Below, piece after piece: positions 2,279 through 15,029 of a DNA stretch of 16,588 nt. The stretch is taken from the NCBI GenBank assembly GCA_002428445.1, contig DIWJ01000030.1, forward strand, positions 1,217-17,804, in the 5' to 3' direction. Source of the stretch: Syntrophaceae bacterium UBA6109. Lineage in GTDB: Bacteria > Desulfobacterota > Syntrophia > Syntrophales > UBA6109. The notes under the pieces are model-generated. The model saw only the letters and a program-made list of their open reading frames with translations, was not told the origin of the DNA and did not search any database. Both the position numbers and the translations under genes were made by a program. Each line of letters opens with the position of its first letter. Within the stretch, counting starts at the first letter, position 1.

Positions 2279-2290
2279 TCAACCCTCCCA
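2253..2290. repeat. 21-nt-period tandem duplication at the aconitase X stop codon
   Basis: A 17-nt unit at 2253-2269 recurs at 2274-2290 with two mismatches and a period of exactly 21 nt (seven codons). On the minus strand both copies read WEG-x-PGE in the aconitase X frame. The first copy has TGA at x, the actual stop, and the second has TCA (Ser). Confidence 0.7.
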
Positions 2291-3523
2291 CTTCTTCGCG
2301 ATGGCGGCGGCGATGACCTTGTCCGTGCTGCCGTAATGGGTGGGAAATCCCTCCTCTCCCGCGACGTAATGGGCCATTTTCGCCGAATCGGTGGTCAGGG
2401 TCCGGTACCCCTGCTTCTTGGCCATCTCCTTGCTGGGGGTGTGGGCCGGACAGGTGTCGCAGACGATCATGCCCCCCGCCTCCTCGATCGCCCTGGCATA
2501 GCCCATGTGTTGGGCAAGGGTCCTGACGGCAGTGGAGGTATTGACCCAGAGCTCCACGTCCCGGTGGACCTTCTTTCCGGCCAGGGCCCGCGCGATATCC
2601 CGCACCTCCAGGATGGAACAGTGCGGGCAGCCGAGGTAGACCCAGTCCACGTGGTCCGACTTCTCCAGGTTCAGGTGTTCGCTCGCCGCCTGTTCGTCCC
2701 CGGCGGTGTACTCCAGGGTCGCCTCCGGCTTTTTCCCCCCGAAGGCCGCCTCGAGCGTTGGGGCCTCCGGGGTCGCCCCGACCACGTGGAAGAGCGAGAC
2801 CGCGCCGGATGTGGCCAGGGCGGAACCCAGGGCCTTGAGTTCGTCGAAAGAGACGTTTGCGGGAATTCCGGTGAAGACCGGGGTGGCCTGCTTGGCAATG
2901 GCCCCCACGTGATACCCCAGTGCGCCATATTCGAAATTGCCGCAAAGGGGCCGCGGCACGTGGATCAACAGTTTTCCGCAGCGGTTTTCCGTAAGGTGCA
3001 TGCCGTAGGCCGGGGCTTTGCCGGTCAGGGATGAGGCCAGGGCCGTGGGGCCTCCTTCCCGGTTCGTCCGTGCCCCCAGGACGGAATTGGCGTAGACCAC
3101 GGCGGAGGATTCCCCCCAGGCGGCATGCTCGCCGAGCCGCGGCGCATTGCCGATGAAATAGGGCGTGCAGGTAGCGCAGGTGATGGCGCCCAGTTGCTGG
3201 TAGGCGGCGGTGAGCCGGGTCTGGAGATCCACGATCTCCTTGCTGATCCCCAGCTTCTCCCACAGGGTGTCGTCGCAGGAGGTGGGGTTGGTCGTCGTGA
3301 AGGTGCGGAATTGTCCACCCTTGGCAGCCATCTCCTCGACGAACATCATCCCCGCCCTCCCCAGCAGCATGATGGAGGCGCCGGGCATGTGGGCGCTGGC
3401 CACGTCGACCATCCGCTCGGCGCCGAAGCTCTCCCCGAGGACCGTCATGATCTGCATGCCCTTCTGGATCGGGTAGCCCATTTTGCCGTCGAGCATCCGC
3501 TTTTCCTGGTCCGTCAGAAACAT
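2279..3523 (-). CDS. Aconitase X large (catalytic) subunit
   Basis: A 414-residue aconitase X catalytic subunit (formerly DUF521). The aconitase superfamily performs dehydration or hydration with an Fe-S cluster. Known members of this branch include cis-3-hydroxy-L-proline dehydratase and archaeal phosphomevalonate dehydratase. Visible motifs are CATCTPY (116-121), GARTNREGGP (150-159), LGCPHCS (297-303) and CDTCPAHTP (355-363). The cysteines in these motifs are the expected cluster ligands, and GARTNREG is the substrate-binding signature. The ATG at 3523 is chosen because AAGGAG lies 7 nt upstream; the frame stays open to a GTG at 3565 that overlaps the preceding stop but has a poorly placed SD. 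The small subunit is encoded just upstream (38-nt gap), so this is the two-subunit form. It is the last gene of the operon. The exact substrate is unknown. Confidence 0.9.
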   Translation of the reverse strand: MFLTDQEKRMLDGKMGYPIQKGMQIMTVLGESFGAERMVDVASAHMPGASIMLLGRAGMMFVEEMAAKGGQFRTFTTTNPTSCDDTLWEKLGISKEIVDLQTRLTAAYQQLGAITCATCTPYFIGNAPRLGEHAAWGESSAVVYANSVLGARTNREGGPTALASSLTGKAPAYGMHLTENRCGKLLIHVPRPLCGNFEYGALGYHVGAIAKQATPVFTGIPANVSFDELKALGSALATSGAVSLFHVVGATPEAPTLEAAFGGKKPEATLEYTAGDEQAASEHLNLEKSDHVDWVYLGCPHCSILEVRDIARALAGKKVHRDVELWVNTSTAVRTLAQHMGYARAIEEAGGMIVCDTCPAHTPSKEMAKKQGYRTLTTDSAKMAHYVAGEEGFPTHYGSTDKVIAAAIAKKWEG

Positions 3524-3561
3524 TCCTTCTCTCCTTACCCGGCTGTGCCGATACCCGGCGA

Positions 3562-3978
3562 TCACCCCTTCGGGGTCACGATGACCAGGCCCTGATCGGC
3601 GTCGACTTCAACCGTGTCGCCGGTCGCGATGACTTCCAGGGGATTCCTGTCCAGGCCGTCGACCACCGGCATGTCGCCCATGATGGCGCCGATTGTGGCA
3701 ATGGGTTCCGATTGGAGCTGGACAAAGGCGATCGGTCCCGTGTGATGGACAGCCATGTCGTAGATGCGGTAGGAGCCGCCCGTCGAACCCTTGCCCGTCG
3801 GATAAACCAGAACCTTCCCGGCCAGGCACACCCCTTCCAGCGGATGTCCGGGTTCGGTCACCACCCCGGTGAGGGGATCGACCCCGCCGATGAAGCTGAT
3901 GGGCTCGCCGGTGACCACGGCTTCACCCTTGGCATGGCCGGGCACGACTTTCCGTCCTTTCAAGGTGATACTCTTCAT
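3562..3978 (-). CDS. Aconitase X small (swivel) subunit
   Basis: A 138-residue protein of the aconitase X swivel-domain family (formerly DUF126), which forms the mobile fourth domain of the enzyme and supplies a catalytic serine to the large subunit. Visible features are GGVDPLTGVV (31-40), HPLEG (45-49) and the glycine/serine loop GKGSTGGS (62-69), where S65 or S66 is the expected catalytic residue. The length is normal for the separate subunit. The ATG is preceded by AGGGAA, and the gene starts 8 nt after the upstream RraA-like gene ends, so translation is probably coupled. With the large subunit next to it, the pair should form an active heteromeric hydro-lyase in the cytoplasm. Confidence 0.92.
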   Translation of the reverse strand: MKSITLKGRKVVPGHAKGEAVVTGEPISFIGGVDPLTGVVTEPGHPLEGVCLAGKVLVYPTGKGSTGGSYRIYDMAVHHTGPIAFVQLQSEPIATIGAIMGDMPVVDGLDRNPLEVIATGDTVEVDADQGLVIVTPKG

Positions 3979-3986
3979 ATAGTTCC

Positions 3987-4664
3987 CTATTTCTTGTTGA
4001 GCATCGTGTCGTACCCGGAGGCCTTGTCCACGTCCCTAAAGGAGACGCCCGCCTTGATCCTTTCGATCAGTCCGTTCTCCTTCTCGACCAGTTCCCTGGC
4101 GATCTTCAGGACCTCTTCGGCCCGGTCGATGGGGATGACGCAGATGCCGTTCACGTCGGCCACCACGATCTCGCCGGGATTGACCTGTAGATTGCCGATC
4201 TTCACGGGACAGTTGAAATCGCCCTGGACGTTGCGGTTGCGCGCCGTCAGGGGCACGATGCCGCGGGCGAAGACGGGAAATCCCATCTCCTCGGTCACGT
4301 CCACGTCGCGGGCGGCCCCGTCGATGACGACGCCGACCACCCCCTTCTGCAGCGCCGCATAGGTGACGATCTCGCCCCAGCAGTTCTGATCCACCCGTCC
4401 CCCGTTGTCGATCACCAGCACGTCGCCCGACTGGGCGGCGTCCAGGGGATCGGCGCCCATATGGCCGCTGGTGCGCAGGGAACCGAAGGGCACGACCTTC
4501 ATGGTGACGGCTGTTCCGGCGATCCTGGCACAGCGGTAGAGAGGCCGGATCCCGAAGGTTCCGCAGGGAAGACCGAGCTTGTCCAACGCATCGGATATGT
4601 TGCAGGTGGAAATCGCTTTGAAAGCCTCTGCCAACTGTTTCGGCGCACGCCTGATTTCACTCAT
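3987..4664 (-). CDS. RraA-like aldolase, copy 1 (HMG/CHA aldolase family)
   Basis: A 225-residue member of the RraA / 4-hydroxy-4-methyl-2-oxoglutarate aldolase family. Enzymes of this group split 4-hydroxy-2-oxo dicarboxylates to pyruvate plus a second oxo acid and often decarboxylate oxaloacetate; others (RraA proper) only inhibit RNase E. The metal/substrate motif is intact: GDVLVIDNGG (80-89) and DGAARD (115-120), with R119 and D120 matching the catalytic Arg-Asp pair that RraA proper tends to lack. This supports a real lyase. The start is set by AGGAGG 8 nt before the ATG; a much longer upstream extension of the frame overlaps the aldolase gene and is not protein-like. It lies between the HpcH/HpaI aldolase (26 nt) and the aconitase X small subunit (8 nt). 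The true substrate is unknown. Confidence 0.9.
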   Translation of the reverse strand: MSEIRRAPKQLAEAFKAISTCNISDALDKLGLPCGTFGIRPLYRCARIAGTAVTMKVVPFGSLRTSGHMGADPLDAAQSGDVLVIDNGGRVDQNCWGEIVTYAALQKGVVGVVIDGAARDVDVTEEMGFPVFARGIVPLTARNRNVQGDFNCPVKIGNLQVNPGEIVVADVNGICVIPIDRAEEVLKIARELVEKENGLIERIKAGVSFRDVDKASGYDTMLNKK

Positions 4665-4690
4665 TTCAATACCTCCTGTTATCGATAAGT

Positions 4691-5554
4691 TTAGGTCCGT
4701 CCTGCGAGCTGCCTGCCTTTGAGCAACGCCGGACGGGTGGTCACGTCGGACGGCATGAGCCAGGCATACCCCTCGGCGAGGATGCGTTCCACATTGTCGG
4801 CATCCACGTGCGGATGTCCGACGGTCACGTTGTAGTCTTTGCATATGGCGACGATGTCCGCCATCGCCGCCCTCAGGTCCGGATGGTCGTATTGTCGCGG
4901 GATGCCCATTTCCTGGGAGAGATCCCCTTCGCCGATGAGAACGGCGCTGATTCCGGGAACCTCTTCGAGGATTTTGGGAAGGTTCCTGATGGCCCGCAGC
5001 TCTTCGCACATGATGATGCACATGAGCTCCCCTTCCGGGACAAAGGGCCAGACATCGGCCCGTTTGTAGTACTCGGCGTTGGTGATGCCCCAGTATCGGG
5101 CCGCGGCGGTCGGAGCATCGCCCCGGATCCCCGGCGGGAAGTAGCGGGGCGCCGATTTCCGGCGGGGATAGCGGCAGGCGCCCACGGCGCTCACGGCCTC
5201 TTCCACGGTGCTGCAGTGCGGCCAGATGATGCCGTATACGCCGAGGTCCAGAACCTGCTTGGCGATCCAGCTGTTCTTCTCGATTCCGTTGGGCGGGACG
5301 CGGACAAGCGGCGTCACCTTGGTGGCCAGCGTGCCGCCGGCCACCAGTTGCCCGCGGCTCAGCATGAACTGCAGGGCAACCCGCAGGCTGTTGATGTCGT
5401 ATGCGCTGTGCTCCATCTCGAACACGCAGCCGTCGTAGTCGCTGGCGCTGACGGCGATTGCCGCTTCGATGGTGGGCATGATGAAGGGCAAAAATACGGG
5501 TCTTCCCTCGGCCCTCTGCCGGATGACCCCGTTAAGCCTGGGTATCTCTGTCAT
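4691..5554 (-). CDS. HpcH/HpaI-family class II aldolase
   Basis: A 287-residue metal-dependent aldolase of the HpcH/HpaI family, whose members cleave 4-hydroxy-2-oxo acids to pyruvate and an aldehyde (2-keto-3-deoxy sugar acids, 2,4-dihydroxyhept-2-enedioate). Visible landmarks are FEMEHSAYD (45-53) with the catalytic His H49, R85 in VRVP, KQVLDLGVYGIIWP (99-112), a Glu of the IIMCEE segment (E184/E185) as metal ligand, and GEGDLSQEMG (208-217) with D211 as the second metal ligand. It is about 30 residues longer than the usual 250-260, with extra residues between 130 and 175. The ATG has AAGGAG upstream. PanB ends 18 nt before it. It is probably the main pyruvate-releasing step; the exact substrate is not deducible. 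Confidence 0.88.
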   Translation of the reverse strand: MTEIPRLNGVIRQRAEGRPVFLPFIMPTIEAAIAVSASDYDGCVFEMEHSAYDINSLRVALQFMLSRGQLVAGGTLATKVTPLVRVPPNGIEKNSWIAKQVLDLGVYGIIWPHCSTVEEAVSAVGACRYPRRKSAPRYFPPGIRGDAPTAAARYWGITNAEYYKRADVWPFVPEGELMCIIMCEELRAIRNLPKILEEVPGISAVLIGEGDLSQEMGIPRQYDHPDLRAAMADIVAICKDYNVTVGHPHVDADNVERILAEGYAWLMPSDVTTRPALLKGRQLAGRT

Positions 5555-5572
5555 GGTCTCTTCTCTCCTTGT

Positions 5573-6418
5573 TCAGCCTTTCACGCTTTGGAGGAACTTC
5601 TCCTCTTCCCCGGCGAGCATGCTGTAGCAGTGTTCGGGTCCCGGGAAGGCCTTTGTCCGCACGTCCGCGACGTACTCCCTCATGGCATCGGTGATCACCC
5701 CGGCGACATTGCAGTACTTCTTGACGAATTTCGGCGAAAAGGCCTGGAACTGGCCGATGAGGTCCGACACGATCAGCAGTTGCCCGTCGCAATGGAGCCC
5801 GGCGCCGATGGACAGGACCGGAATTTTCAGACTCCCGGCAATGTACCGGCCGACTTCCGGTGGGATGGCCTCCAGCAGGAGCATGTGCGCTCCGGCCTCC
5901 TGCACGGCCAGAGCGTCCCTGACCAGGAGCCCGGCTGCCTCGGCCGTGCGGCCCTGCGCCTTGTGCCCGCCCAACTGGCCCGAGGACTGGGGGGTCAGGC
6001 CGATGTGCCCCATCACGACGATGCCGGCATCGACGATGGCCCGGATCTGCGGGACGATCCGGACGCCTCCCTCGAGCTTGATCGCGTCGCACCCACACTC
6101 CTTCAGGAAGCGTCCGGCATTGTCCACGGCCTTTTCCACCGAACTCTGATAGCTCAGAAACGGCATGTCCCCCACGATGAACGTATCGGGGGCGCCCCGG
6201 CGAACGGCCTCGGCGTGGAAAATCATCTGATCCATCACCACGGGATTCGTTCCCGGATAGCCGTAGACGCACATCCCCAGGGAATCGCCCACGAGCAGCA
6301 TGTCGAGCCCCGCCGCCTCGGCGAATTGGGCCGTGGGATAGTCGTAGGCCGTCAGAAAGGTGATTTTTTCGCCTTTCTTTTTCATCTCATAGAAATCATG
6401 AACCGTTTTTCTTTTCAT
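5573..6418 (-). CDS. panB: 3-methyl-2-oxobutanoate hydroxymethyltransferase (PanB) or catabolic paralogue
   Basis: A 281-residue protein with full PanB similarity. PanB transfers a hydroxymethyl group from methylene-tetrahydrofolate to 2-oxoisovalerate, giving ketopantoate for pantothenate and CoA synthesis. All catalytic and Mg2+ positions known from E. coli are present: D45 (VGDSLG), D84 (GDMPF), K114 and E116 (KLEGG), H138 (GHIGLTPQ) and E183 (LEAIP). GGHKAQGRT and SIGAGLHCDGQ are also standard. The ATG has GGAGAG upstream. What is odd is the place: no panC, panD or panE is nearby, and the gene is buried among catabolic lyases. It may be a misplaced biosynthetic gene, or a relative working in reverse that removes a hydroxymethyl group from a branched oxo acid and loads it on tetrahydrofolate. 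Sequence alone does not decide. Confidence 0.9.
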   Translation of the reverse strand: MKRKTVHDFYEMKKKGEKITFLTAYDYPTAQFAEAAGLDMLLVGDSLGMCVYGYPGTNPVVMDQMIFHAEAVRRGAPDTFIVGDMPFLSYQSSVEKAVDNAGRFLKECGCDAIKLEGGVRIVPQIRAIVDAGIVVMGHIGLTPQSSGQLGGHKAQGRTAEAAGLLVRDALAVQEAGAHMLLLEAIPPEVGRYIAGSLKIPVLSIGAGLHCDGQLLIVSDLIGQFQAFSPKFVKKYCNVAGVITDAMREYVADVRTKAFPGPEHCYSMLAGEEEKFLQSVKG

Positions 6419-6504
6419 CTTTTCTCTCCGTCAGGACAAATTCCGTCTCGTATTAAAAGTCGCAGGCATCTTGAACCTTGCCTGCTTTGCCTCAATCATG
6501 CCGG

Positions 6505-6522
6505 ATCGGGGCCGGACCCGAT
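6505..6522. other. GC-rich hairpin in the RraA2-panB gap
   Basis: ATCGGG (6505-6510) and CCCGAT (6517-6522) form a 6-bp stem with a 6-nt loop, inside the longest gap of the operon (6419-6549). No T-run follows, so it is not a clear terminator; it could act as an mRNA stabiliser or weak attenuator. Confidence 0.3.
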
Positions 6523-6549
6523 GCCCCCGGCCGCGCCCGGCGGGGCCCT

Positions 6550-7212
6550 TCAATCCTTGGCCCTTTGCAGGGCGTCGTAATTGAACCTCACCCGCGCCTC
6601 CTTCAGGGTCAGACCCTCCCGGATGGAAGCGACGATCTTCTGTTCCGCCGCGTCGATCTCCAGGGCCAGGGCCAGAACTTCCCCGGCGCGGCTCTGCGGG
6701 ATGACCAGCACGCCGGACTGGTCAGCCATCATCAGGTCGCCGGGGTGGACCTGAACGTCGCAGATGGCCACCGGCTTGTTGAAGGACTCCATCACGACGC
6801 GGTCCTTGCCGGTCACCATGAAGTGGCCGCGGGTGTACATCGGATAACCGAGCTCGCGGATGCCGTCCACGTCGCGGCAGACGCCGTCGATCACCGTGCC
6901 TGCAAGCTTCTTCTGGACAGCCATGTGGGTCAGGATGTCGCCCCATACGGTGCAGTACATCCTGCCCGCATTGTCGATGACGATCACGTCGCCTTCTTTG
7001 GCCTCGTCGATGAAATCCCCGGCCCCCGTCTTCACCTGGGCGATCGGAAGGAATTTGACCGTAAAGGCGGGGCCGACGATCTTCTTGCCTACGACAATGG
7101 GCGCCAGTCCCTGACAGCCGCAGCGGATTTTGAGCCTGTCCAGCGCATCGGACACGCTCGGGGTGGATAACGCCATGAAACCCTTGATGAGTTCATCTTT
7201 GTTCTCAGCCAT
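6550..7212 (-). CDS. RraA-like aldolase, copy 2 (HMG/CHA aldolase family)
   Basis: A 220-residue second member of the RraA / HMG-CHA aldolase family. The motif GDVIVIDNAGR (74-84) and VIDGVCRD (107-114), with R113 and D114, keeps the Arg-Asp pair needed for metal and substrate binding, so a lyase is likely. It is clearly diverged from the copy at 3987-4664 (compare NAGRMYCTVWGD with NGGRVDQNCWGE), so the two are not a recent duplication and may handle different substrates or form a mixed complex. The start is set by AAGGAG 7 nt before the ATG at 7212; in-frame upstream starts (ATG 7227, TTG 7275) lack an SD or run into the IlvD-like gene. The gap to the upstream gene is 31 nt. A 131-nt gap with a hairpin follows before panB. 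Confidence 0.9.
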   Translation of the reverse strand: MAENKDELIKGFMALSTPSVSDALDRLKIRCGCQGLAPIVVGKKIVGPAFTVKFLPIAQVKTGAGDFIDEAKEGDVIVIDNAGRMYCTVWGDILTHMAVQKKLAGTVIDGVCRDVDGIRELGYPMYTRGHFMVTGKDRVVMESFNKPVAICDVQVHPGDLMMADQSGVLVIPQSRAGEVLALALEIDAAEQKIVASIREGLTLKEARVRFNYDALQRAKD

Positions 7213-7243
7213 TCCATTCTCCTTCATATGACTCGAATCTGTC

Positions 7244-8902
7244 TCAATCCCGCCGCAGTACGGCGCCCTGTTCAACCGGCAGCATGGTTTTGGATATCCG
7301 TGACAGCAGCCCCTTGGTAAATTTCGCCGGGGCGGGCTGCCACGCCTTCCTGCGCATCTCGATGACCTGCTCGTCCACGAGCAGATCCACCCTTCTTTCG
7401 GGGATGTTCACCGAAATCAGGTCCCCGTCCCGAACCAGGGCGATGGGGCCTCCGGCGGCGGCCTCCGGCGAAACGTGGCAGATGGCCCCGCCCTTGTTCG
7501 TGCCCGAAAAACGGCCGTCGGAAATGAGGGTCACGGCCGCCTCCAGGTTCATCCCGGCCAGCAGCCAGAGGAACCGCGCCGTGATTCTCATTCCCGGATC
7601 GCCCTTGGGTCCGACGTTGCGGATCACGACCATGTCCCCCGGCTGGACAAGACCCGCCAGCAGCTTTTCGCAGGCCTCCTTTTCCGATTCGAAGACCCTG
7701 GCCCGGCCCTGGCGGGCGAACTGCTCCTCCACGAGCCCGGAGATCTTCACGGCCGCGCCGTTGGGGGCCAGGGTTCCCTGTAGAATCGCCACCCCGCCCT
7801 CGGGGGAAAGGGGCGTCGACAGGGGATGGATCACCTGGCGGTTCAACACCTCGGCCCCGGCGATATTCTCTCCCAGAGTCTTTCCCGTCACGGTCAGTGC
7901 CCCGGTGTGGAGAAGGGGCCTCAACTCCGCCAGGAGCGCGGGCAGGCCGCCCGCCTCGTCCAGCTCCTTCAGGGTGAACTTCCCCGAGGGCTTGACGTTG
8001 CAGATGAAGGGGGTCTGCCGGCTCAGCTCGTCGAAGAGGGCCAGGGGGAGGGCCATCCCGAGTTCGCCGGCGATGGCCGGCAGATGGATCAGGGCATTGG
8101 TCGAGCCGCCCACGGCCAGAAAAATCCGGATCGCGTTCTCGAAACCGGCCCGGGTCATGATGTCCGCGGGCCGGATCTGCCCCGCAAGCAGGGACATGAT
8201 CTGCACGCCCGCCTGATGGGCCATCCGCCCGATCAGCGGATCGGACCCGGAGACAGTGGCGTTTCCGGGCAGGGTCATGCCCAGGGTTTCGGCGATGACG
8301 CCCATGGTGTTGCCCGTCCCCATGACGGGGCAGGCCCCCAGGTTCCCGCAGGCCATATCGACCATCTCGTCGAACTCCCTGCGGGACAGCAAACCCTTCT
8401 CCATCTCGCCGTATCCCGTGCCCACCTGGATGGCGTGGCAGGTCCGCCCCTTGAACTGCTTGGGGGCCATGTAGCCGCCCAGCACGATGATCGACGGGAT
8501 GTTCAGCCTCGCCGCCGCCATGAGGTGGGCGGGGACCACATCGTCGCAGACGGTGGTGAACACCAGCGCGTCGAGCAGATTGACCTCCGCGATCAGCTCC
8601 ACGTAATCGACCACCACGTCCCTATAAGCCAGGGCATAGCTGCTTCCCCGGCTTCCGCCGGAGATCCCGCCGCAAAGGGAGCTGATGGAAAATTCGATCG
8701 GGCAGCCGCCGGCAGCCGCGATTCCCAGCTTGACCTGGCCCGCGAGTCTGCCCAGATGACCGGCAGCGGGATTGATCTCTCCCCAGCCGTTCAGGACGCC
8801 GATGAGCGGCTTTCGGAGCTGGTCCGTCGAGAACCCGATTCCCTTCATGAGGGTCTGCCGAAAAGGGAGACTCCAATGATCCAGCGTATCTTCCTTTTTC
8901 AT
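7244..8902 (-). CDS. IlvD/Edd-family dehydratase homologue with altered metal site
   Basis: A 552-residue protein collinear with dihydroxy-acid and sugar-acid dehydratases (IlvD/Edd), Fe-S and Mg2+ enzymes that convert 2,3-dihydroxy acids to 2-oxo acids. Family blocks kept are KPLIGVLNGWGEINP (31-45), HLMAAARLNIPSI (126-138), GNTMGVIAETLGM (197-209), LAVGGSTNALIHL (262-274), LTVTGKTL (336-343), SDGRFSGTNKGG (461-472) with the catalytic Ser S466, and SPEAAAGGPIALV (478-490). Cluster cysteines C119 and C191 are present; the first Cys of [2Fe-2S] members (NPC) is A46, as also absent in E. coli IlvD. Striking changes are G78 for the Asp of the usual SDGIS motif, D121 for the carbamylated Lys of CDK, and V430 for the Glu of the YEGPKG motif. 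All three normally bind Mg2+, so IlvD function is unlikely unless the site is rebuilt. The SD before the ATG is weak (GCAGAG). Confidence 0.88.
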   Translation of the reverse strand: MKKEDTLDHWSLPFRQTLMKGIGFSTDQLRKPLIGVLNGWGEINPAAGHLGRLAGQVKLGIAAAGGCPIEFSISSLCGGISGGSRGSSYALAYRDVVVDYVELIAEVNLLDALVFTTVCDDVVPAHLMAAARLNIPSIIVLGGYMAPKQFKGRTCHAIQVGTGYGEMEKGLLSRREFDEMVDMACGNLGACPVMGTGNTMGVIAETLGMTLPGNATVSGSDPLIGRMAHQAGVQIMSLLAGQIRPADIMTRAGFENAIRIFLAVGGSTNALIHLPAIAGELGMALPLALFDELSRQTPFICNVKPSGKFTLKELDEAGGLPALLAELRPLLHTGALTVTGKTLGENIAGAEVLNRQVIHPLSTPLSPEGGVAILQGTLAPNGAAVKISGLVEEQFARQGRARVFESEKEACEKLLAGLVQPGDMVVIRNVGPKGDPGMRITARFLWLLAGMNLEAAVTLISDGRFSGTNKGGAICHVSPEAAAGGPIALVRDGDLISVNIPERRVDLLVDEQVIEMRRKAWQPAPAKFTKGLLSRISKTMLPVEQGAVLRRD

Positions 8903-8918
8903 CTCTGCGCTTCACCCT

Positions 8919-8936: not shown

Positions 8937-8998
8937 TCTATCCCTTCATTTCGAGTCTGCCTGATTTCGTCCGTCGGATCTCTGCCGGCGGGCGTTTC

Positions 8999-9682
8999 CT
9001 AAAATCCCAGTTCTTCCCCGACCAGGACGACCAGCATCTCGGCCCCTTTGGGCTTCCTATGCATGATCGTCATGACGCCGCAGGAGCGGTCGGGCGCTTC
9101 GCAGTCGTTGCACTCGCCCGATACGGCGCAGGGAACCTTGCCTCTGCCCCGATGGGCCGATATGGGCGCCGTCACGGTCTCGATCCTTTCCATGGCGGCA
9201 TTGACGTCCCTGACCGCCTTGTAAACCGAGACCACCACGATGGTCCGGCGCGGGCCGAAAATCATCGCCGCCACCCGGTTGCCGAAGCCGTCCATGTTGA
9301 CCAGCTTGCCGTCAAAGGTGACCGTGTTGGATGAACAGAGGTAGACGTCTGCCATCATTGCCTTCCGGCGCACGTCGAAATCGCGGCCCATCACGAACCC
9401 ATCCACCCTTCCGCCGTTGGCGCTGTGGCCCAGCTCCGCCTTCCAGTGGTGAAAAACAACGTGGCCGCGCTTCTCCAGTTCCTCGATCAGGCCCAATTGC
9501 CGTATGGTGACGGAACCTCCCACCCCGATCGCCGCCGCCTCGGGGATCTGCGAGAGCACGTGTTCCCTGGCCTCCCGGGCCGAGGGAAAGTAGATCGCGT
9601 CAAACCGGTTCTTTCGTAAGGCCGTTGTCAGCCTCTCTCCCAAGCTGTCCAGGTGCCATCGCTTCGAAGGATGCATCTCCAT
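8999..9682 (-). CDS. LUD-domain protein (LutC/YkgG type) with C-terminal Cys cluster
   Basis: A 227-residue LUD-domain protein. LutC/YkgG relatives take part in lactate oxidation as part of LutABC, but many stand-alone members of the family have no known role. Visible are GVGGSVTIRQLGL (53-65), the LUD core LCSSNTVTFDGKLVNMDGFG (115-134) and FGPRRTIVVV (142-151). Four cysteines near the end, C185-x5-C191-x2-C194-x6-C201, could hold a metal or Fe-S cluster. No lutA or lutB lies nearby, so a complete lactate dehydrogenase complex is not encoded here. The SD GAGGAG sits 6-7 nt before the ATG at 9682. The MmgE/PrpD gene ends 10 nt upstream, so the two are probably co-translated. Its job in this pathway is unknown; an electron-transfer or redox-partner role is a guess. 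Confidence 0.85.
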   Translation of the reverse strand: MEMHPSKRWHLDSLGERLTTALRKNRFDAIYFPSAREAREHVLSQIPEAAAIGVGGSVTIRQLGLIEELEKRGHVVFHHWKAELGHSANGGRVDGFVMGRDFDVRRKAMMADVYLCSSNTVTFDGKLVNMDGFGNRVAAMIFGPRRTIVVVSVYKAVRDVNAAMERIETVTAPISAHRGRGKVPCAVSGECNDCEAPDRSCGVMTIMHRKPKGAEMLVVLVGEELGF

Positions 9683-9692
9683 GGAAATCTCC

Positions 9693-11093
9693 TCACCCCC
9701 GGGCCGGGTCGGCCGGAGCCAGCAGGCCAGTCAGGGTTTTGATATCGTCCAGCGTTTCAAGCTTCCAGACGGTCTCGTAAATCTCTTCCGCCCGCTGCCG
9801 GGGAACCGCATCGCCCGCAAGGTCCATGAACTTGCGGATCACCTCTTCATCGGTCAGCGGCATTTCCGGCTCCCCCTTGGGCAGATCGCGCCGCGCCCGG
9901 AAGGTTTCGCCGTTTTTCATCGTCACCTCGACGATGCTCGGCCACATCTCGTCGTAGAGCTTGTCCAGTTCGGGATCCGCCCGGATCTCCACCTTGGCGG
10001 TCAAGTCCATGATCCTCCTGTCGGCGATCTTCTCGAGCGTGTAATCGTCACGCCAGGCCTGCCCCGCAATCAGGGCCGTGGCGATGCTGAAGGGGGCGCT
10101 GTACTTGGCCGCGGAGACGGTGGCCGGTGCGCGGTTGTTTCCGCGGCTCGCGATCCGGAAGGTCCGGTGAACGATCCGGTCGATCTGATCCGCTGCCGGG
10201 GCATGACGCTCGCGGATCTCCAGGGCCGCGTCGATGGCCGTGTGGTGCTGGCGGCAGCAGGCATAGGGTTTCATGCCGGCGTAGAGGATCTGGTATTCCT
10301 TCCCGAGTCCCGCGACCACCCGGTTCAGGTCGTATCGGTCCGCCGCGGCCTTGGCAAATCCCAGGGGCCCGTCCAGCCAACTGGGAGGTCCCTCGAATCC
10401 GTTGCAGGCGAGATTCACGGCATGGATTCCCGTTGCGGCGGCCCAGCCGATACAGAGCTCCTTGGAGGAAGAGCCCTCCCGGTAGTTTTCGTACTGTGAA
10501 ACCGGGGTCAAATAGGCCGCCGTGCCCAGGGCGCCCAGGAACCGGCCGGGGTCCAACCTATGGAGGCTGGCCGCGGCGCCGGCGGCCCCGAGCGTTCCAA
10601 GCGTCGCCGCCGGCAGAAAGACCCGGTCCAGGTAGATCGAGGGGCTGACGGCGTTCCCCACCCGGTTCTCCACCTCATACCCCGCAATGACGGCGCAGAT
10701 TACATCCTTTCCCCCCAGTCCCATCTCCTCGGCCAGAGCCAGGGCCGGGGGGATGGTCGTTGCAGCCGGATGGCAATGGGACGTGCGGTGAACGTCGTCC
10801 AGCTCCAGGTTGAAGATCATGGAGGCGTTGGCCAGGGTGGCCAGGGCCGCAGAAGTGGTCTCTTTCCGGCCCCAGAGCGAAGCCCGTCCCGGGGTCTTCT
10901 GCTGGAGAACGTATTGCGCCAGCCGAAGACCCGAGTCGGTCTTCGAAGCGGACAGGGCGATGCCCAGGATGTCGACCACGCGCCGCTTGACCTCGTGGAC
11001 GGCCGCGGAAGGGATCCTCTCGTAGACTGTGCTCGCCACGTCCTGCGCCAGGGCGCGGGTTTCTCCGTTCAAATTTTCGTTCACTTGAATCAT
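9693..11093 (-). CDS. MmgE/PrpD-family dehydratase
   Basis: A 466-residue cofactor-free hydro-lyase or isomerase of the MmgE/PrpD family (2-methylcitrate dehydratase, cis-aconitate decarboxylase, iminodisuccinate epimerase). Visible are ELDDVHRTSHCHPA (97-110), the usual acidic/His active-site stretch, SKELCIGWAA (210-219) and KPYACCRQHHTAID (275-288). Length is normal for the family. The ATG at 11093 is chosen over a GTG at 11147 because the family alignment starts here and GAGG lies about 8 nt upstream. It is the first enzyme after the transporter genes (123-nt gap from tctC) and ends 10 nt before the LUD gene. Neither prpB nor prpC is present, so a methylcitrate cycle is not supported; it more likely dehydrates the imported hydroxy acid. 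Confidence 0.9.
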   Translation of the reverse strand: MIQVNENLNGETRALAQDVASTVYERIPSAAVHEVKRRVVDILGIALSASKTDSGLRLAQYVLQQKTPGRASLWGRKETTSAALATLANASMIFNLELDDVHRTSHCHPAATTIPPALALAEEMGLGGKDVICAVIAGYEVENRVGNAVSPSIYLDRVFLPAATLGTLGAAGAAASLHRLDPGRFLGALGTAAYLTPVSQYENYREGSSSKELCIGWAAATGIHAVNLACNGFEGPPSWLDGPLGFAKAAADRYDLNRVVAGLGKEYQILYAGMKPYACCRQHHTAIDAALEIRERHAPAADQIDRIVHRTFRIASRGNNRAPATVSAAKYSAPFSIATALIAGQAWRDDYTLEKIADRRIMDLTAKVEIRADPELDKLYDEMWPSIVEVTMKNGETFRARRDLPKGEPEMPLTDEEVIRKFMDLAGDAVPRQRAEEIYETVWKLETLDDIKTLTGLLAPADPARG

Positions 11094-11216
11094 GGTCAAA
11101 CCTCGCTTCGGCCGTTCATGGTCCTTGGCCGCTTCCGGCAACACCACCCCGATACGCCTGCGTAAAAGCAGGTTTCACCGCGACAATCCGGAGGCGTTGC
11201 ACTCCCCTTAACCGCC

Positions 11217-12209
11217 TCAGTTCTTCTTCAGACCCAAGCCGGGCACGACCTTCTCGAAATTCCTTTCGTTCTGAGCCATGAGTTCCGCCGATTCGGCCGG
11301 CCCCAGGTACATCTGGCCGTAGCCGTTCTTGGTCATGAAATCGACGAATTTGGGGGTTGCCACGGCCTTTCGCGTCGACTGTTCCAGCCGGGCGATGATC
11401 TCCTTGGGCGTGGTCTTGGGCGCCGCCAGACAGCGCCACGTGCCGAAGACGAAATCGACGCCGGCTTCCCTGAAGGTCGGCACGTCCGGGAAGAGCGCGT
11501 CACGCTTGTTGTCCGAAATGGCCAGGATGCGCAGTTTTCCGCCGCGGACCAGGGCCGCGACCTCCGCCGGGCTCACCGTGGTGGCCTCGACGTGGCCGCC
11601 GGCCGTGGCTACGGCGGCGGGCCCGCCTCCGCCATAGGGAACGTGCGTAAACTGGATTCCGAGATTGTGTCCCAGCATGGCCGCCATGACGTGCCAGATG
11701 GCGCCGGTCCCGGAGTTGGCGATCCTCATTTTCATGGGATTGGCCTTCGCGAAATCCAGGGCCTCCTTCAGCGTCTTCCAGGGGGCGTCGGCCTTGACCG
11801 TAAAAGCCGCGGGATCATTGTTATGGACGGCAATGGGGGCCAGTTCCCGCCAGTCCAGGTAGCTCGACGCCGACCACTTCTGCAGGATCATCGAGGGGGT
11901 GGCGATGCCGATGGTGTACCCGTCGGGCTTGGCCGCGGCGATCTGGTTGAAGCCCAGCAGGCCGCCTCCGCCCGGCTTGTTGACCACAACGACCGGTTTC
12001 CCCAGGTCCGCCTTCATGACGTCCGCCAGGATGCGTGAAATCAAATCCGTTCCCCCGCCAGCGGCCCAGGGGACGATCAGGGTGATCTCCTTTTCCGGAT
12101 ACTCGGCCCAGGCGCGGGACATGCCGTCCATGACGACAAGGCTCAGGCTAAGACAAAGGATCATGACGAATTGAATCGATCTGCCGACGGCTCCACAATT
12201 TCTTTTCAT
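11217..12209 (-). CDS. tctC: Tripartite tricarboxylate transporter substrate-binding protein (TctC/Bug)
   Basis: A 330-residue periplasmic solute-binding protein of the TctC/Bug family. It has a Sec signal peptide: MKRN, a hydrophobic core (about 13-27) and a likely cleavage after AWA35. The mature part opens with the family hallmark YPEKEITLIVPWAAGGGTD and continues with NKPGGGGLLGFNQIAAAKPDG-type motifs, HVPYGGGGPA and the late segment LFPDVPTFREAG. The start at 12209 is favoured by an excellent SD (AAAGGAGGT) and the signal-peptide layout; an upstream in-frame extension to 12245 would bury the signal. It captures the carboxylate and delivers it to TctAB. The gene follows tctA after 32 nt. 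Bug proteins bind diverse acids, so specificity cannot be read. Confidence 0.95.
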   Translation of the reverse strand: MKRNCGAVGRSIQFVMILCLSLSLVVMDGMSRAWAEYPEKEITLIVPWAAGGGTDLISRILADVMKADLGKPVVVVNKPGGGGLLGFNQIAAAKPDGYTIGIATPSMILQKWSASSYLDWRELAPIAVHNNDPAAFTVKADAPWKTLKEALDFAKANPMKMRIANSGTGAIWHVMAAMLGHNLGIQFTHVPYGGGGPAAVATAGGHVEATTVSPAEVAALVRGGKLRILAISDNKRDALFPDVPTFREAGVDFVFGTWRCLAAPKTTPKEIIARLEQSTRKAVATPKFVDFMTKNGYGQMYLGPAESAELMAQNERNFEKVVPGLGLKKN

Positions 12210-12241
12210 TTTTGACCTCCTTTGATCAGTGTTGTCGGGCA

Positions 12242-13735
12242 TCACTGCACCGGACTCTTTCTTGCTTTGAACAGCGGGAAGAGCGAGACTCCTAACATCA
12301 CGATGGCGACAGCCAGGAACGTCAGAGAAATCGGTCTTTCAAAAAAGATGGAAAAAGAACCATAGGAGAGAACCAGGGACCGCCGGAAATGGTCTTCGAA
12401 CAGCGGCCCCAGGACAAAGGCCAGAATCAGGGGTGTGGTTTCATAGCGGAATTTGTGCATCAGGAAGCCCACGATGCCGAAAGCGATCATGATTCCGATG
12501 TCGAATGCCGCATTGGCTACGCTGTAACTCCCCAACAGACAGAATAGGAAAATGACGGGGAAGAAAAAGGCATAGGGGATCTTCAATATCTGCACCCACA
12601 GGCCGACCAGGGGCAGATTCAGCCCCAGCAGCATCGCGTTGCCGATGTACATGCTGGCGATGATGCTCCAGAAGATCTCGGGATTCTGGGCGATCAGGAG
12701 GGGGCCCGGGGTAATGCCGTGGATCATCAGGGAAGCCAGCAAGAGCGCCATGGTCGTGTTGGTCGGGATGCCGAGGGAAAGCAGGGGGATGAAGGAGGCG
12801 GAGGGACCGGCATTGTTCGCCGATTCGGGACCGGCAACGCCTTCGATCACCCCGGTGCCGAACTTTTCCGGATGCTTTGAAAGCTTCTTTTCCAGCGCAT
12901 AGGACATGGTGCTGGAGATGACGGTATTGCCGCCGGGAATCACGCCGATGATGAATCCCAGCACGGTTCCCCGGACGATGGGCCATGCCGAGTCGATCCA
13001 GTCCTGCACCGTCGGCAGGAGGTTCTTGATCTTTCCGGAAAGGATGCTCCGGAATTCATCCTCTTCGAGATTCTTGAAGATCTCCGCAACGCCCAGGAGC
13101 CCCATGATCACGGGGATCAACCCCAGGCCGTCCATCAGGGAGGGTATGCCGCAGGTAAACCGCTCCACCCCGTCGATGGAGTCCGTGCCGATCGTCCCCA
13201 GCATCAGCCCCAGGATGCCCATCATGTAGGCCTTCAGCTTGGAACCGGATCCCAGGAAACTTACCAGGATCAGCCCGCAGAAGATGAGGGATACGTACTC
13301 CGGGGAGGAAAACTGCAGGGCAAAGCTGGCAAAGGGCGGGGCCAGGAACAGGAGCCCGACCAGGCTGATCGTCCCGGCGATGAAGGAGCCGATGGCGGCC
13401 ATTCCCAGGGCCGGCCCGCCTCTGCCCTTGCGGGCCATCTGATAACCGTCGATGCAGGTGACGACGCTGGCCGCCTCCCCGGGGAGATTGATGAGGATGG
13501 AGGTGGTTGAGCCGCCGTACATAGCGCCGTAGTAGATCCCGGCGAGCATGATGATGGCCGTGGCCGGCGGAAGGGCAAAGGTGATCGGCAGGAGCAGGGC
13601 CAGGGCGCCGCTCGGCCCGAGGCCCGGCAGGACCCCGATCAGGGTTCCGACAAAGCAGCCCACGAAACAGAAGAGGATGTTTTGAGGTTGAAATGCGATG
13701 GTCAGCCCGTACCACAAACCCGATATTGAATCCAT
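12242..13735 (-). CDS. tctA: Tripartite tricarboxylate transporter large membrane subunit TctA
   Basis: A 497-residue inner-membrane protein, the large permease of the TTT family that moves carboxylates using an ion gradient. The N-terminal half carries the conserved glycine-rich segments GVLPGLGPSGALALLLP (34-50) and YYGAMYGGSTTSILINLPGE (68-87), followed by GYQMARKGRGGPALG; the repeated counterpart in the second half is GVIPGGNTVISS and GVAGPESANNAG, ending with SLGIPTNTTMALLLA. About twelve hydrophobic segments are visible. The ATG at 13735 has a weak GAGGGCGG upstream. tctB ends 16 nt before, tctC starts 32 nt after. Gene order B-A-C is one of the usual TTT arrangements. Confidence 0.96.
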   Translation of the reverse strand: MDSISGLWYGLTIAFQPQNILFCFVGCFVGTLIGVLPGLGPSGALALLLPITFALPPATAIIMLAGIYYGAMYGGSTTSILINLPGEAASVVTCIDGYQMARKGRGGPALGMAAIGSFIAGTISLVGLLFLAPPFASFALQFSSPEYVSLIFCGLILVSFLGSGSKLKAYMMGILGLMLGTIGTDSIDGVERFTCGIPSLMDGLGLIPVIMGLLGVAEIFKNLEEDEFRSILSGKIKNLLPTVQDWIDSAWPIVRGTVLGFIIGVIPGGNTVISSTMSYALEKKLSKHPEKFGTGVIEGVAGPESANNAGPSASFIPLLSLGIPTNTTMALLLASLMIHGITPGPLLIAQNPEIFWSIIASMYIGNAMLLGLNLPLVGLWVQILKIPYAFFFPVIFLFCLLGSYSVANAAFDIGIMIAFGIVGFLMHKFRYETTPLILAFVLGPLFEDHFRRSLVLSYGSFSIFFERPISLTFLAVAIVMLGVSLFPLFKARKSPVQ

Positions 13736-13751
13736 CGAACCGCCCTCAGTC

Positions 13752-14213
13752 TCAGAATTTGATCACGCCCGGCGGGAGAGAAACACCGAGGCCTGTCTTG
13801 AAGAGCAGATAACTGCCCATCGATAAAATGAGAGCCGCCAGCAGCGAAGTCGTCCATCTCTTGGCGCTGATCCACCGAAACAGGGAAAGGATGAAAATGA
13901 ACGTCGTGACAATGTATCCGAGGAAATCCAGGGCAATCAGATAGAAGACCAGGCAAGCCAGGGCGTTGAGGACTTTTCGCGAACTTGCCGGTCTGAGCCA
14001 GAAGTCCTCCCGTTGCCCGGCCCGATCCGGGTGCAGGATTGATTTCACGAGAAGCACGGCCGACAACAGGGATAGGACACCCCCCGTGAGCAGGGGGAAA
14101 AAGCCTGCGCCGGGCGAAGTCAACTGACCGAGGCTGCATCTGAGCCCTCCCGCGATGAAGCAGAGGCCGACCACGAGCATTACGGAACTGCTGACCAAAT
14201 CCCTGTTTTTCAC
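13752..14213 (-). CDS. tctB: Tripartite tricarboxylate transporter small membrane subunit TctB
   Basis: A 153-residue small membrane protein with four hydrophobic segments (about 8-24, 40-56, 83-112 partly split, 122-140), as expected for TctB, the small partner of TctA. The segment SPGAGFFPLLTGGVLSLLS (33-51) matches the family signature. The start is GTG at 14213, preceded by AGGAG at a good distance; an ATG seven bases upstream is in another frame. The gene lies 36 nt after the GntR regulator and 16 nt before tctA. Sequence conservation in this family is low, so the call rests on topology, signature and context. Confidence 0.9.
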   Translation of the reverse strand: MKNRDLVSSSVMLVVGLCFIAGGLRCSLGQLTSPGAGFFPLLTGGVLSLLSAVLLVKSILHPDRAGQREDFWLRPASSRKVLNALACLVFYLIALDFLGYIVTTFIFILSLFRWISAKRWTTSLLAALILSMGSYLLFKTGLGVSLPPGVIKF

Positions 14214-14249
14214 GCCTCATCTCCTGAAGGTCTGCTCGGCTGATATTCG

Positions 14250-14921
14250 TTACAGTGCGTGCAGCACGTTGTCCCGGACGTTGCGGATGTGGGTCTTGAG
14301 CAGATCGCTTGCAGAATCGAAATCCTTGCTCCTGATGGCATTGACAATGGCTCTGTGTTCCTGAATGGACCGTTTCGTCCTGCCGGTTACGGTTGTTCCC
14401 AGGTATCGGACCCGCAGCAGTTGCGTCTTCAGGATGTCGATGAACTGGGCCAGGCGACGGTATCCGGACTTCTCGATGATGAGTTCATGGAGCTTCACGT
14501 CGCTGATGACGGAGGTTTCGAAGTCGCCTCCGGCGATGTCTTTTTCCGCCTGAATGAGCAGCTGTTCCACTTCGTCCAGATCGCTTTCGCTGATCCTGGG
14601 GATCGCGGCCTTCAGGGCCGTGCATTCCAGAACCTCCCGTAGAACGAACATCTCCTCCACGTCTTCCTTCTTGACGTCCGCCACGAAGGCGCCTTTGGTC
14701 GGGATGATCCGGATCAGCCCCTCGTTGTGGAGCTTCTTGAAGGATTCGCGGATGGGCGTGCGGCTGATGTTGATCTGCTCCGCGATTTTCGCCTCCACCA
14801 GGGGCTCTCCCGGCTTGAGTCTGTACGAAATAATGGCGTCCTTGATCAGGCTGTACGCCTTGTCGCCGAGGGAAACCGCGGAGTTGCTGGTCAGTTCCTT
14901 TACGGTTTTTGGGGATTTCAT
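14250..14921 (-). CDS. GntR-family transcriptional regulator, FCD (FadR) subfamily
   Basis: A 223-residue regulator. The N-terminal winged helix-turn-helix spans about 18-82, with AEQINISRTPIRESFKKLHNEG (47-68) as the recognition region and the wing at IIPTKGAFV. The C-terminal all-helical FCD ligand-binding domain (about 88-220) keeps the metal-binding set D141 and H145 (DVKLH), H189 (EHR) and H211 (KTH); members with this set usually bind a carboxylate through the metal. It is the first gene of the minus-strand block, 36 nt before tctB, and probably controls the operon and itself, since a matching palindrome lies upstream. The SD GGAGGG stands 9 nt before the ATG. The effector is likely the imported acid or an intermediate. 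Confidence 0.93.
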   Translation of the reverse strand: MKSPKTVKELTSNSAVSLGDKAYSLIKDAIISYRLKPGEPLVEAKIAEQINISRTPIRESFKKLHNEGLIRIIPTKGAFVADVKKEDVEEMFVLREVLECTALKAAIPRISESDLDEVEQLLIQAEKDIAGGDFETSVISDVKLHELIIEKSGYRRLAQFIDILKTQLLRVRYLGTTVTGRTKRSIQEHRAIVNAIRSKDFDSASDLLKTHIRNVRDNVLHAL

Positions 14922-15029
14922 GATGCATTCCCTCCGATCAAGCGTTTACGGCAGGCACAATGTCGGCTCATGGCCTTTCCCGTGATTGCGGAATACCTTT
15001 AGTATACCGTCGGGATTCTGTCAAGCATT

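What the first reader, a model, noticed from the sequence alone, without database searches (positions are those of the whole stretch)
2279..14921. Thirteen-gene catabolic operon of unassigned substrate
A GntR/FCD regulator, TctBAC importer, three hydro-lyase families (MmgE/PrpD, IlvD/Edd-like, aconitase X L+S), four C-C bond enzymes (RraA x2, HpcH/HpaI, PanB) and a LUD protein all run in one direction with mostly 8-40-nt gaps. I know no described pathway with this set. The lack of CoA-activating enzymes and the presence of pyruvate-type aldolases point to a branched or polyhydroxylated carboxylic acid cut to pyruvate units, perhaps with a C1 unit going to tetrahydrofolate through PanB.
Basis: inference. 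Interest (0 to 1): 0.7.

Follow-up and report, generated by a model that had tools for sequence, protein, structure and literature searches.

The report
Uncharted acid-breakdown operon
A real 13-gene bacterial operon, built around a little-known aconitase relative and two RraA enzymes that recur together in several bacterial phyla, probably imports and cuts up a branched organic acid whose identity is still unknown.

Summary
In detail: 13 same-strand genes of the families named, 9 of 12 spacings 8-38 nt. The likely host is a desulfobacterial anaerobe. Whether the genes travel together has a split answer. The core does: AcnX large and small subunits with RraA-type enzymes. Of 105 AcnX loci examined, 27 have an RraA gene within 10 kb, and all 27 carry one active-site signature (Val at TkAcnX position 53, Gly at small-subunit position 64). 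The 50 loci with the mevalonate-phosphate residue Asn53 have none. RraA1 and RraA2 belong to two (A, B) of three RraA groups in these clusters; [quoted passage not shown] PrpD, GntR and TctC recur; IlvD, HpcH, PanB and LUD occur in at most 1 of 27. The IlvD is non-canonical: in it and its best hits (120 entries) Asp/Glu replaces the carbamylated Mg-binding Lys, and none of 119 has Glu at the second ligand place. Best reading: catabolism of a branched hydroxy-polycarboxylate through a 4-hydroxy-4-substituted-2-oxo acid cut to pyruvate and a second oxo-acid. Substrate, reaction order and the roles of PanB and LUD are inference. The library searched gave no published description.

The parts
14250..14921 (-). 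GntR/FCD transcriptional regulator, first gene of the operon
   Evidence: PF00392 and PF07729; GntR relatives within 10 kb of AcnX in 9 of 27 RraA-linked loci
13752..14213 (-). TctB, small membrane subunit of the tripartite tricarboxylate transporter
   Evidence: PF07331, 79.8 bits
12242..13735 (-). TctA, large membrane subunit
   Evidence: PF01970, 522 bits
11217..12245 (-). TctC, solute-binding protein (start probably 12209)
   Evidence: PF03401, 202 bits; best solved chain 4x9t, also BugD and terephthalate-binding proteins; TctC relatives in 15 of 27 RraA-linked loci
9693..11147 (-). MmgE/PrpD-family enzyme (start uncertain, perhaps 11093)
   Evidence: PF03972 and PF19305; far under the PrpD cut-offs; solved relatives are cis-aconitate decarboxylases and iminodisuccinate epimerase
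8999..9682 (-). Stand-alone LUD-domain protein
   Evidence: PF02589, 122 bits; no NCBIfam hit; no PDB sequence match up to E 0.1
7244..8902 (-). Non-canonical IlvD/Edd dehydratase (Cys-Asp-Asp in place of Cys-Asp-Lys; second Glu Mg ligand replaced)
   Evidence: PF00920 and PF24877; under all 8 NCBIfam cut-offs listed; residue counts
6550..7212 (-). RraA1, group A of the RraA set
   Evidence: PF03737; tree of 60 RraA rows; 72% identical to the L001 and 61% to the L003 counterpart
5573..6418 (-). PanB, ketopantoate hydroxymethyltransferase family, kind common in Desulfobacterota
   Evidence: TIGR00222 317 bits against cut-off 207.55
4691..5554 (-). HpcH/HpaI-family aldolase of an uncharacterised subfamily
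   Evidence: PF03328; 74.4 bits against HpaI cut-off 368.8; 52-54% relatives near amidohydrolases in 4 of 4 plasmid loci opened
3987..4664 (-). RraA2, group B of the RraA set
   Evidence: PF03737; tree; R123, D124 and E199 of the 3NOJ aldolase kept (counted on the alignment)
3562..3978 (-). AcnX small (swivel) subunit
   Evidence: PF01989; motif GKGSTG with Gly where the mevalonate-phosphate type has Val
2279..3523 (-). AcnX large subunit (longest ORF starts 3565; 3523 more likely)
   Evidence: PF04412, 466 bits; iron-sulphur and catalytic residues kept, both known substrate signatures absent
2132..2148 (-). Terminator-like hairpin with T-rich tail past the last gene (weak)
   Evidence: number of such sites not above shuffles

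Best explanation
This is a GntR-controlled catabolic operon, probably of an anaerobic desulfobacterium. TctBAC imports a branched hydroxy-polycarboxylic acid. The old core is AcnX plus two RraA-family enzymes (groups A and B). AcnX adds or removes water at a tertiary beta-hydroxy acid, as it does with mevalonate 5-phosphate, here on a 4-oxalomesaconate- or aconitate-like molecule. That gives a 4-hydroxy-4-carboxy- or 4-hydroxy-4-methyl-2-oxo acid. HpcH, which takes the place of the missing third RraA (group C, which includes the known aldolase LigK), and/or the RraA proteins split this by retro-aldol reaction into pyruvate and a second oxo-acid such as oxaloacetate, which RraA can decarboxylate to pyruvate. 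PrpD and the unusual IlvD prepare the substrate by dehydration. PanB would, if used in reverse, hand a hydroxymethyl carbon to tetrahydrofolate. Shown here: gene content, the AcnX-RraA association, group membership and active-site residues. Inferred: host, substrate, reaction order, direction, and the roles of HpcH, PanB and LUD.
For: Core association: 27 of 105 AcnX loci have RraA within 10 kb, in Bacillota, Synergistota, Spirochaetota and Pseudomonadota; 27 of 27 have Val53/Gly64, and 0 of 50 loci with Asn53 have RraA. Fe-S ligands C133, C313, C372 and catalytic E152, S153, S154, K396, Y400 are kept in the window (roles from PMC8184944). Both RraA proteins keep the catalytic Arg/Asp/Glu of HMG/CHA aldolase (PMC5065237). 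Group C includes a protein that passes the LigK model (345.7 against 304.5 bits), lying with groups B and A beside a LigB-type ring-opening dioxygenase and 4-hydroxybenzoate 3-monooxygenase in Aminobacter. HpcH relatives lie near 335-350-residue amidohydrolases with no RraA in 4 of 4 loci opened. Among the 27 loci 1 has a glutamate symporter and 5 an aminotransferase relative, and RraA triads without AcnX sit beside aminotransferases, as expected for 2-oxoglutarate-like acids. The transporter is of the tricarboxylate class.
Against: No relative with the same full set was found; the best loci share 7 of the 13 families (L003, L048). No assay of an AcnX of this class is known to me. The known oxalomesaconate/CHA route is aerobic (recalled), and the window has no lactonase, dioxygenase or aldehyde dehydrogenase among the ORFs scanned, so the source of such an acid in an anaerobe is unexplained. 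An RraA relative is a dehydratase/decarboxylase rather than an aldolase (PMC8563752). PrpD, IlvD, LUD and PanB have no assigned step. Of the 27 loci 6 carry LeuB, 5 LeuD, 9 a dihydroorotate-dehydrogenase-like Fe-S protein and 5 UbiD relatives, which this window lacks, so the related pathways may differ. Window RraA1 and RraA2 score far under the LigK model (79.0 and 112.3 against 304.5).
Confidence: 0.42

Rival explanations
1. Sugar-acid operon: the main route is IlvD (aldonate or aldarate to 2-keto-3-deoxy acid) followed by HpcH retro-aldol to pyruvate and an aldehyde, with AcnX, RraA and PrpD serving a side branch.
For: IlvD/Edd plus HpaI-type aldolase is a common sugar-acid pair (recalled); [quoted passage not shown] a YhcH-family gene lies just upstream (sugar role recalled).
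Against: The IlvD has lost two of the four Mg ligands of the family (PMC5770437) and is under every sugar-acid dehydratase cut-off listed. In the four plasmid loci opened, HpcH relatives sit with aromatic/diacid-type genes, not sugar genes. The transporter is Tct. No sugar-acid dehydrogenase among the ORFs scanned.
Confidence: 0.2
2. Composite operon: two pathways share one regulator and importer; AcnX-RraA-PrpD handles one acid, and the inserted LUD-IlvD-PanB-HpcH genes handle another.
For: The core set stands alone in Paenibacillus L003 (TctC, RraA-B, AcnX-L, AcnX-S, RraA-A, PrpD). IlvD, HpcH, PanB and LUD occur in 1, 0, 1 and 1 of 27 related loci. Close relatives of this IlvD (41 entries at 63-100%, the first being the window itself) outnumber those of this AcnX-L (14 at 65-95%).
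Confidence: 0.2
3. Pantothenate or branched-chain supply: IlvD makes 2-oxoisovalerate and PanB converts it to ketopantoate; the rest is unrelated.
For: PanB passes its equivalog cut-off and is the kind common in Desulfobacterota; IlvD's best NCBIfam score is dihydroxy-acid dehydratase.
Against: No panC, panE, ilvC or ilvB among the window ORFs scanned; IlvD is under the cut-off (533.3 against 618.15) and lacks canonical Mg ligands; a solute importer and 2-oxo-acid lyases have no role in it.
Confidence: 0.06
4. A known AcnX pathway: cis-3-hydroxyproline breakdown or the modified mevalonate route.
For: These are the two AcnX functions described in PMC8184944.
Against: Residues that hold hydroxyproline (Asp203, Thr72) or the 5-phosphate (Asn53), and Val64, are replaced; NF051439 scores 297.7 against cut-off 700; no UbiD or kinase among the ORFs scanned.
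Confidence: 0.03

Closest known systems
[quoted passage not shown]
   Same: RraA-family aldolase chemistry; RraA groups A and B occur beside a LigK equivalog in Aminobacter; hydration of oxalomesaconate is the same type of chemistry as AcnX (inferred)
   Different: No dioxygenase, lactonase, LigJ or LigK in the window; likely anaerobic host; AcnX and HpcH would have to replace LigJ and LigK
AcnX-RraA clusters of Paenibacillus xerothermodurans (L003) and Bacillota Ch29 (L001)
   Same: L003: GntR, TctC, RraA-B, AcnX-L/S, RraA-A, PrpD; L001: RraA-B, AcnX-L/S, RraA-A, PanB
   Different: No IlvD, HpcH or LUD seen; L001 uses a branched-chain-type ABC importer and adds LeuB/C/D and a dihydroorotate-dehydrogenase-like Fe-S protein
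Mevalonate 5-phosphate dehydratase (archaeal AcnX type IIb)
   Same: Two subunits; Fe-S ligands and catalytic residues kept
   Different: Asn53 is Leu and small-subunit Val64 is Gly; no RraA in any of 50 loci with Asn53
IlvD/Edd dehydratases (dihydroxy-acid, pentonate, 6-phosphogluconate)
   Same: Pfam family, three Fe-S cysteines, catalytic Ser, two of four Mg ligands
   Different: Carbamylated Lys replaced by Asp/Glu in all 120 entries (window included) and second Glu ligand replaced in all 119 that have the residue

Membership tests
[quoted passage not shown] NF051439 cut-off | tested here: not met
   Pro61 and small-subunit Gly at the matching places (correspondence from PMC8184944); 297.7 against 700 bits
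Mevalonate 5-phosphate dehydratase (AcnX type IIb) | Asn53(L), which holds the phosphate, and Val64(S) (TkAcnX) | tested here: not met
   Leu67 and Gly at the matching places
Aconitase X, catalytic competence | Fe-S cysteines 110, 283, 342 and Glu129, Ser130, Lys361, Tyr365 of TkAcnX; catalytic Ser62(S) | tested here: met
   C133, C313, C372, E152, S153, K396, Y400; Ser in GKGSTG; the small subunit was matched by motif, not by alignment to the solved chain
HMG/CHA aldolase (LigK/GalC) | Catalytic Arg123, Asp124, Glu199 | tested here: met
   Kept in RraA2 on the alignment to 3NOJ and in RraA1 through the family alignment
HMG/CHA aldolase (LigK/GalC) | TIGR02798 equivalog cut-off | tested here: not met
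   112.3 (RraA2) and 79.0 (RraA1) against 304.5 bits; in the tree they fall in groups B and A, not with LigK
IlvD/Edd dehydratase | Three Fe-S cysteines and catalytic Ser | tested here: met
   C77, C119, C191, S466
IlvD/Edd dehydratase | Cys-Asp-Lys motif with carbamylated Lys, and Glu463 Mg ligand, called fully conserved in PMC5770437 | tested here: not met
   Cys-Asp-Asp and Ile440 where two annotated IlvD proteins have Lys and Glu; 120 entries: Asp 86, Glu 34 at the Lys place; Glu in 0 of 119 at the Glu place, two entries having Glu one residue earlier; mapping to Glu463 is by alignment
Ketopantoate hydroxymethyltransferase (PanB) | TIGR00222 cut-off | tested here: met
   317 against 207.55 bits
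HpaI, GarL and RhmA-type aldolases | NCBIfam equivalog cut-offs | tested here: not met
   74.4/368.8, 60.0/406.75 and 54.1/441 bits
2-methylcitrate dehydratase PrpD | TIGR02330, NF006943 and NF042438 cut-offs | tested here: not met
   28.7/458, 29.9/575 and 81.1/950 bits
LutABC lactate utilisation | LutA and LutB partners | tested here: not met
   None among the 20 window ORFs scanned with Pfam
Tripartite tricarboxylate transporter | TctA, TctB and TctC together | tested here: met
   the ligand is not testable here
Protocatechuate 4,5-cleavage pathway | LigAB, LigC, LigI, LigJ, LigK | tested here: not met
   No ring-opening dioxygenase or amidohydrolase family among the 20 window ORFs scanned; LigK model not passed

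The most novel reading that the evidence does not exclude
The operon encodes an undescribed anaerobic pathway in which a third functional class of AcnX (Val/Leu53, Gly64) is the hydratase of a citrate-like branched oxo-acid. An RraA pair plus a convergent HpcH aldolase cut it to pyruvate. An IlvD/Edd enzyme with a rebuilt metal site makes the 2-oxo group, and PanB runs backwards to feed a one-carbon unit into the folate/Wood-Ljungdahl route. The same AcnX-RraA core would then be a widespread, unrecognised catabolic module in bacteria.
Probability: 0.14. Interest if true: 0.75.

Novelty: new variant of a known kind. Interest (0 to 1): 0.5.

Why it matters
The bacterial AcnX subclasses IIc-IIf had no known function in PMC8184944 (2021). 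The residue rule found here may mark one or more of them (I did not match my class to their letters), and its RraA partners give a small set of substrates to test. The IlvD subfamily runs against the published suggestion that Mg binding through a carbamylated lysine is universal in IlvD/Edd enzymes (PMC5770437), which can be checked directly by metal analysis. Both open "hypothetical" annotations in anaerobes and soil bacteria to experiment.

Tried and rejected
Whole-genome search of the host: none held. PanB and AcnX-L in viral contigs: no relatives. The order-level search around G001 gave only itself (1 of 6 genomes). Rfam at gathering threshold: nothing. Sigma-70 promoter scan: 3 sites, chance level (2.8 +/- 1.6), none on the coding strand. 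Pantothenate synthesis, hydroxyproline and mevalonate routes: considered and set low (see rivals). PanB as proof of a one-carbon step: dropped. The tree shows only that it groups with Desulfobacterota proteins, the L001 cluster copy and a Synergistaceae copy. G001 carries one of this kind in its AcnX cluster and a PanB of the other kind elsewhere, but G005 also has two PanB genes, one of them 71% identical to the window's and outside its AcnX cluster among housekeeping-like genes (not in the tree), and the Synergistaceae copy is that genome's only PanB match. Structure prediction was not run. Paper searches listed no description of an AcnX-RraA operon; the library lacks most subscription papers.

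Against my reading: the RraA-linked AcnX proteins are not shown to be one clade. The 43-row group that holds all 27 has support 89/71, and the label needs 7 changes, partly because the window and 11 database proteins of unknown context were counted as unlinked. For that tree I kept 13 of the unlinked loci among L020-L080 and dropped the others, and dropped rows of 330 residues or fewer. Two loci with the same signature (L004, L112) have no RraA in the stretch held; L018 (Val53, no small subunit recovered) and L064 (large subunit truncated) are undecided. Position 53 is Leu in the window, not Val. 13 of the 27 loci are Pseudomonadota, 12 of them Burkholderiales. RraA group B has support 85/83 only. 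L109 was dropped from the counts as a duplicate of L001; L108 and L114-L118 hold no AcnX and do not enter the 105. Several contigs end close to AcnX, so counts of partners are lower bounds; L017 has a PrpD relative not counted.


Full report
1. What is there. The window holds 13 consecutive - strand genes whose families match the finding. Spacing is tight: 9 of 12 gaps are 8-38 nt with the most likely starts, and the other three are 69-123, 96 and 131 nt. No terminator-like site on the coding strand falls in an internal gap; one lies about 130 nt past the last gene, and such sites are no commoner than in shuffles. Downstream, in convergent orientation, are an ammonium transporter (326-1558) and a PII protein (1571-1918). 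Upstream on the same strand, 550 nt away, is a YhcH/DUF386 gene (15472-16191). Database relatives suggest a desulfobacterial host: the 5 of 120 listed PanB hits that carry an organism name are Deltaproteobacteria, Desulfobacterales, Desulfobacteraceae or Thermodesulfobacteriota, and the 87% IlvD relative is a "Deltaproteobacteria bacterium". This is inference from protein similarity.

2. Do the genes travel together? I took 80 AcnX-L loci from one-per-species genomes, added loci from searches in Bacillota and Synergistota groups and three from plasmids, and searched them with the window proteins and partner proteins. Of 105 loci with AcnX-L, 27 have an RraA-family gene within 10 kb. They span Bacillota, Synergistota, Spirochaetota and Pseudomonadota (13 of 27 are Pseudomonadota). 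Within those 27, relatives of TctC occur in 15, GntR in 9, PrpD in 5, PanB in 1, LUD in 1, IlvD in 1 and HpcH in 0; TctA and TctB were not seen at this threshold. The loci that share most families with the window share 7 of 13: Paenibacillus xerothermodurans L003 (divergent GntR, TctC 51%, RraA-B 59%, AcnX-L, AcnX-S, RraA-A 61%, PrpD 53%) and Dysosmobacter L048 (GntR, RraA-B, RraA-A, AcnX-L, AcnX-S, PrpD, LUD). Bacillota Ch29 L001 has the most similar RraA proteins and a PanB (RraA-B 63%, AcnX-L 57%, AcnX-S 67%, RraA-A 72%, LeuB-like, PanB 61%). So the operon is a recurrent core with additions.

3. A signature separates this AcnX class. I mapped residues described for TkAcnX and AtAcnX (PMC8184944; passages and sections 11 and 14 read) through the alignment to 7CNR and across all loci. 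Fe-S ligands and catalytic residues are kept in the window. The substrate positions differ: all 27 RraA-linked loci have Val at TkAcnX position 53 of the large subunit and Gly at position 64 of the small subunit (the window has Leu and Gly). The 50 loci with Asn53, the residue that holds the phosphate of mevalonate 5-phosphate, have no RraA; 47 of these have Val64 and in 3 the script recovered no small-subunit ORF. The other 28 loci have further combinations and no RraA within 10 kb; among them L004 and L112 carry the Val53/Gly64 signature. The same paper says that bacterial subclasses IIc-IIf have none of the known landmark residues and await characterisation; I did not match my class to those letters.

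4. RraA groups. A tree of 60 RraA rows (59 different) from these loci and from plasmids shows three groups: A (window RraA1; 22 rows, 100/99), B (window RraA2; 20 rows, 85/83) and C (18 rows, 100/99). 17 of the 27 RraA-linked AcnX loci have all three groups within 10 kb, 4 have A+B, 4 have B only and 2 have C only. The window has A+B. Group C includes an Aminobacter protein over the LigK_PcmE cut-off (345.7 against 304.5 bits), which lies directly after groups B and A, near a LigB-family dioxygenase and 4-hydroxybenzoate 3-monooxygenase. Both window RraA proteins keep the Arg and Asp and the distal Glu that are essential or metal-binding in the HMG/CHA aldolase (PMC5065237, passages read). RraA proteins are not always aldolases: FlDet dehydrates and decarboxylates 2-keto-3-deoxy-glucarate (PMC8563752, passages read).

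5. HpcH. I opened 4 of the 20 plasmid loci listed (492 records matched). In all 4 the 52-54% relative lies within 6 kb of a 335-350-residue amidohydrolase (60-88% identical to each other, 34-36% to the amidohydrolase near the Aminobacter RraA triad), and none of the four has an RraA in the stretch. I infer that this HpcH may do the job of the group C aldolase. Any LigJ/LigI reading of the amidohydrolases rests on recalled sizes and on Amidohydro_2 membership, not on a test.

6. IlvD. PMC5770437 (passages and section 10 read) states that the four Mg ligands, including carbamylated Lys130 of Cys-Asp-Lys and Glu463, are fully conserved, suggesting that Mg binding is universal. The window protein has Cys-Asp-Asp, and Ile where two proteins annotated IlvD have Glu. 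In the 120 best database entries, the first being the window protein itself, the Lys position is Asp in 86 and Glu in 34; the Glu position is Leu 43, Cys 32, Ile 26, Val 11, Thr 5, Gln 1, Met 1 and missing in 1 truncated entry, with Glu one residue earlier in two entries. The three cysteines, the first Glu and Asp ligands and the catalytic Ser are kept, apart from gaps in truncated entries. This is a selected set (best hits of one query), but it shows a sizeable subfamily with a rebuilt metal site. The five IlvD genes extracted from other AcnX loci are of different kinds (CDK in four, CDS in one).

7. PanB. The tree puts it with 10 sampled database proteins, the L001 cluster copy and a Synergistaceae copy, apart from six other Bacillota PanB proteins. 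G001 (the genome of L001) has one of each kind. G005 also has two, one of them 71% identical to the window's and away from its AcnX cluster. So a PanB of this kind sits in one other AcnX-RraA cluster, but the kind is not tied to AcnX, and nothing here shows the direction of the reaction.

8. Mechanism. AcnX chemistry (loss or gain of water at a beta-hydroxy acid, including tertiary ones), two RraA proteins with aldolase residues, a pyruvate-aldolase-like HpcH and a tricarboxylate importer together fit a citrate-like oxo-acid that is hydrated to a 4-hydroxy-4-substituted-2-oxo acid and split to pyruvate and oxaloacetate or pyruvate. Addition of water to oxalomesaconate is the textbook case (recalled). 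PrpD and IlvD would act earlier. Every step after gene identity and residue conservation is inference.

9. Novelty. Nine answered full-text searches listed no description of an AcnX-RraA operon; I judged by titles and abstract starts, and opened five papers. The parts belong to known families, so I rate the whole a new variant of a known kind (a Tct-fed organic-acid catabolic operon) with two features that a specialist may find new: the AcnX residue class tied to RraA, and the IlvD subfamily that lacks the Mg-binding lysine.

Noticed in passing
window 7244-8902 (-): IlvD/Edd protein with Cys-Asp-Asp in place of Cys-Asp-Lys and Ile in place of the second Glu Mg ligand; the Asp/Glu change is shared by all 120 best entries.
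   Followed up: yes
L118:7297-9277 (Aminobacter plasmid pSR1): RraA groups B, A and a LigK equivalog in a row behind a LigB-family dioxygenase, which suggests that RraA groups A and B have roles in aromatic lower pathways too.
   Followed up: partly
L114:7318-10491, L116:7293-10522: RraA triads without AcnX in the stretch but with a PLP aminotransferase and an alpha/beta hydrolase on Rhizobium and Burkholderia plasmids, possibly for 4-substituted glutamates.
   Followed up: no
L111, L017, L021, L024, L168, L170: Anaerobe-type AcnX-RraA clusters with various of LeuB/LeuD-like enzymes, a dihydroorotate-dehydrogenase-like Fe-S protein, UbiD/UbiX and aldehyde:ferredoxin oxidoreductase: related but different pathways.
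   Followed up: partly
L007:5964-7096, L013:13470-14612: Two-gene TPP-enzyme-like pairs near AcnX, RraA and TctC in Burkholderiales (5 of 27 RraA-linked loci).
   Followed up: no
window 14991-15018: Imperfect palindrome (GGAATAC/GTATACC arms) upstream of the GntR gene, a possible operator.
   Followed up: no
window 15472-16191 (-): YhcH/DUF386 family gene 550 nt upstream of the GntR gene, same strand, with a long N-terminal extension in the longest ORF.
   Followed up: no
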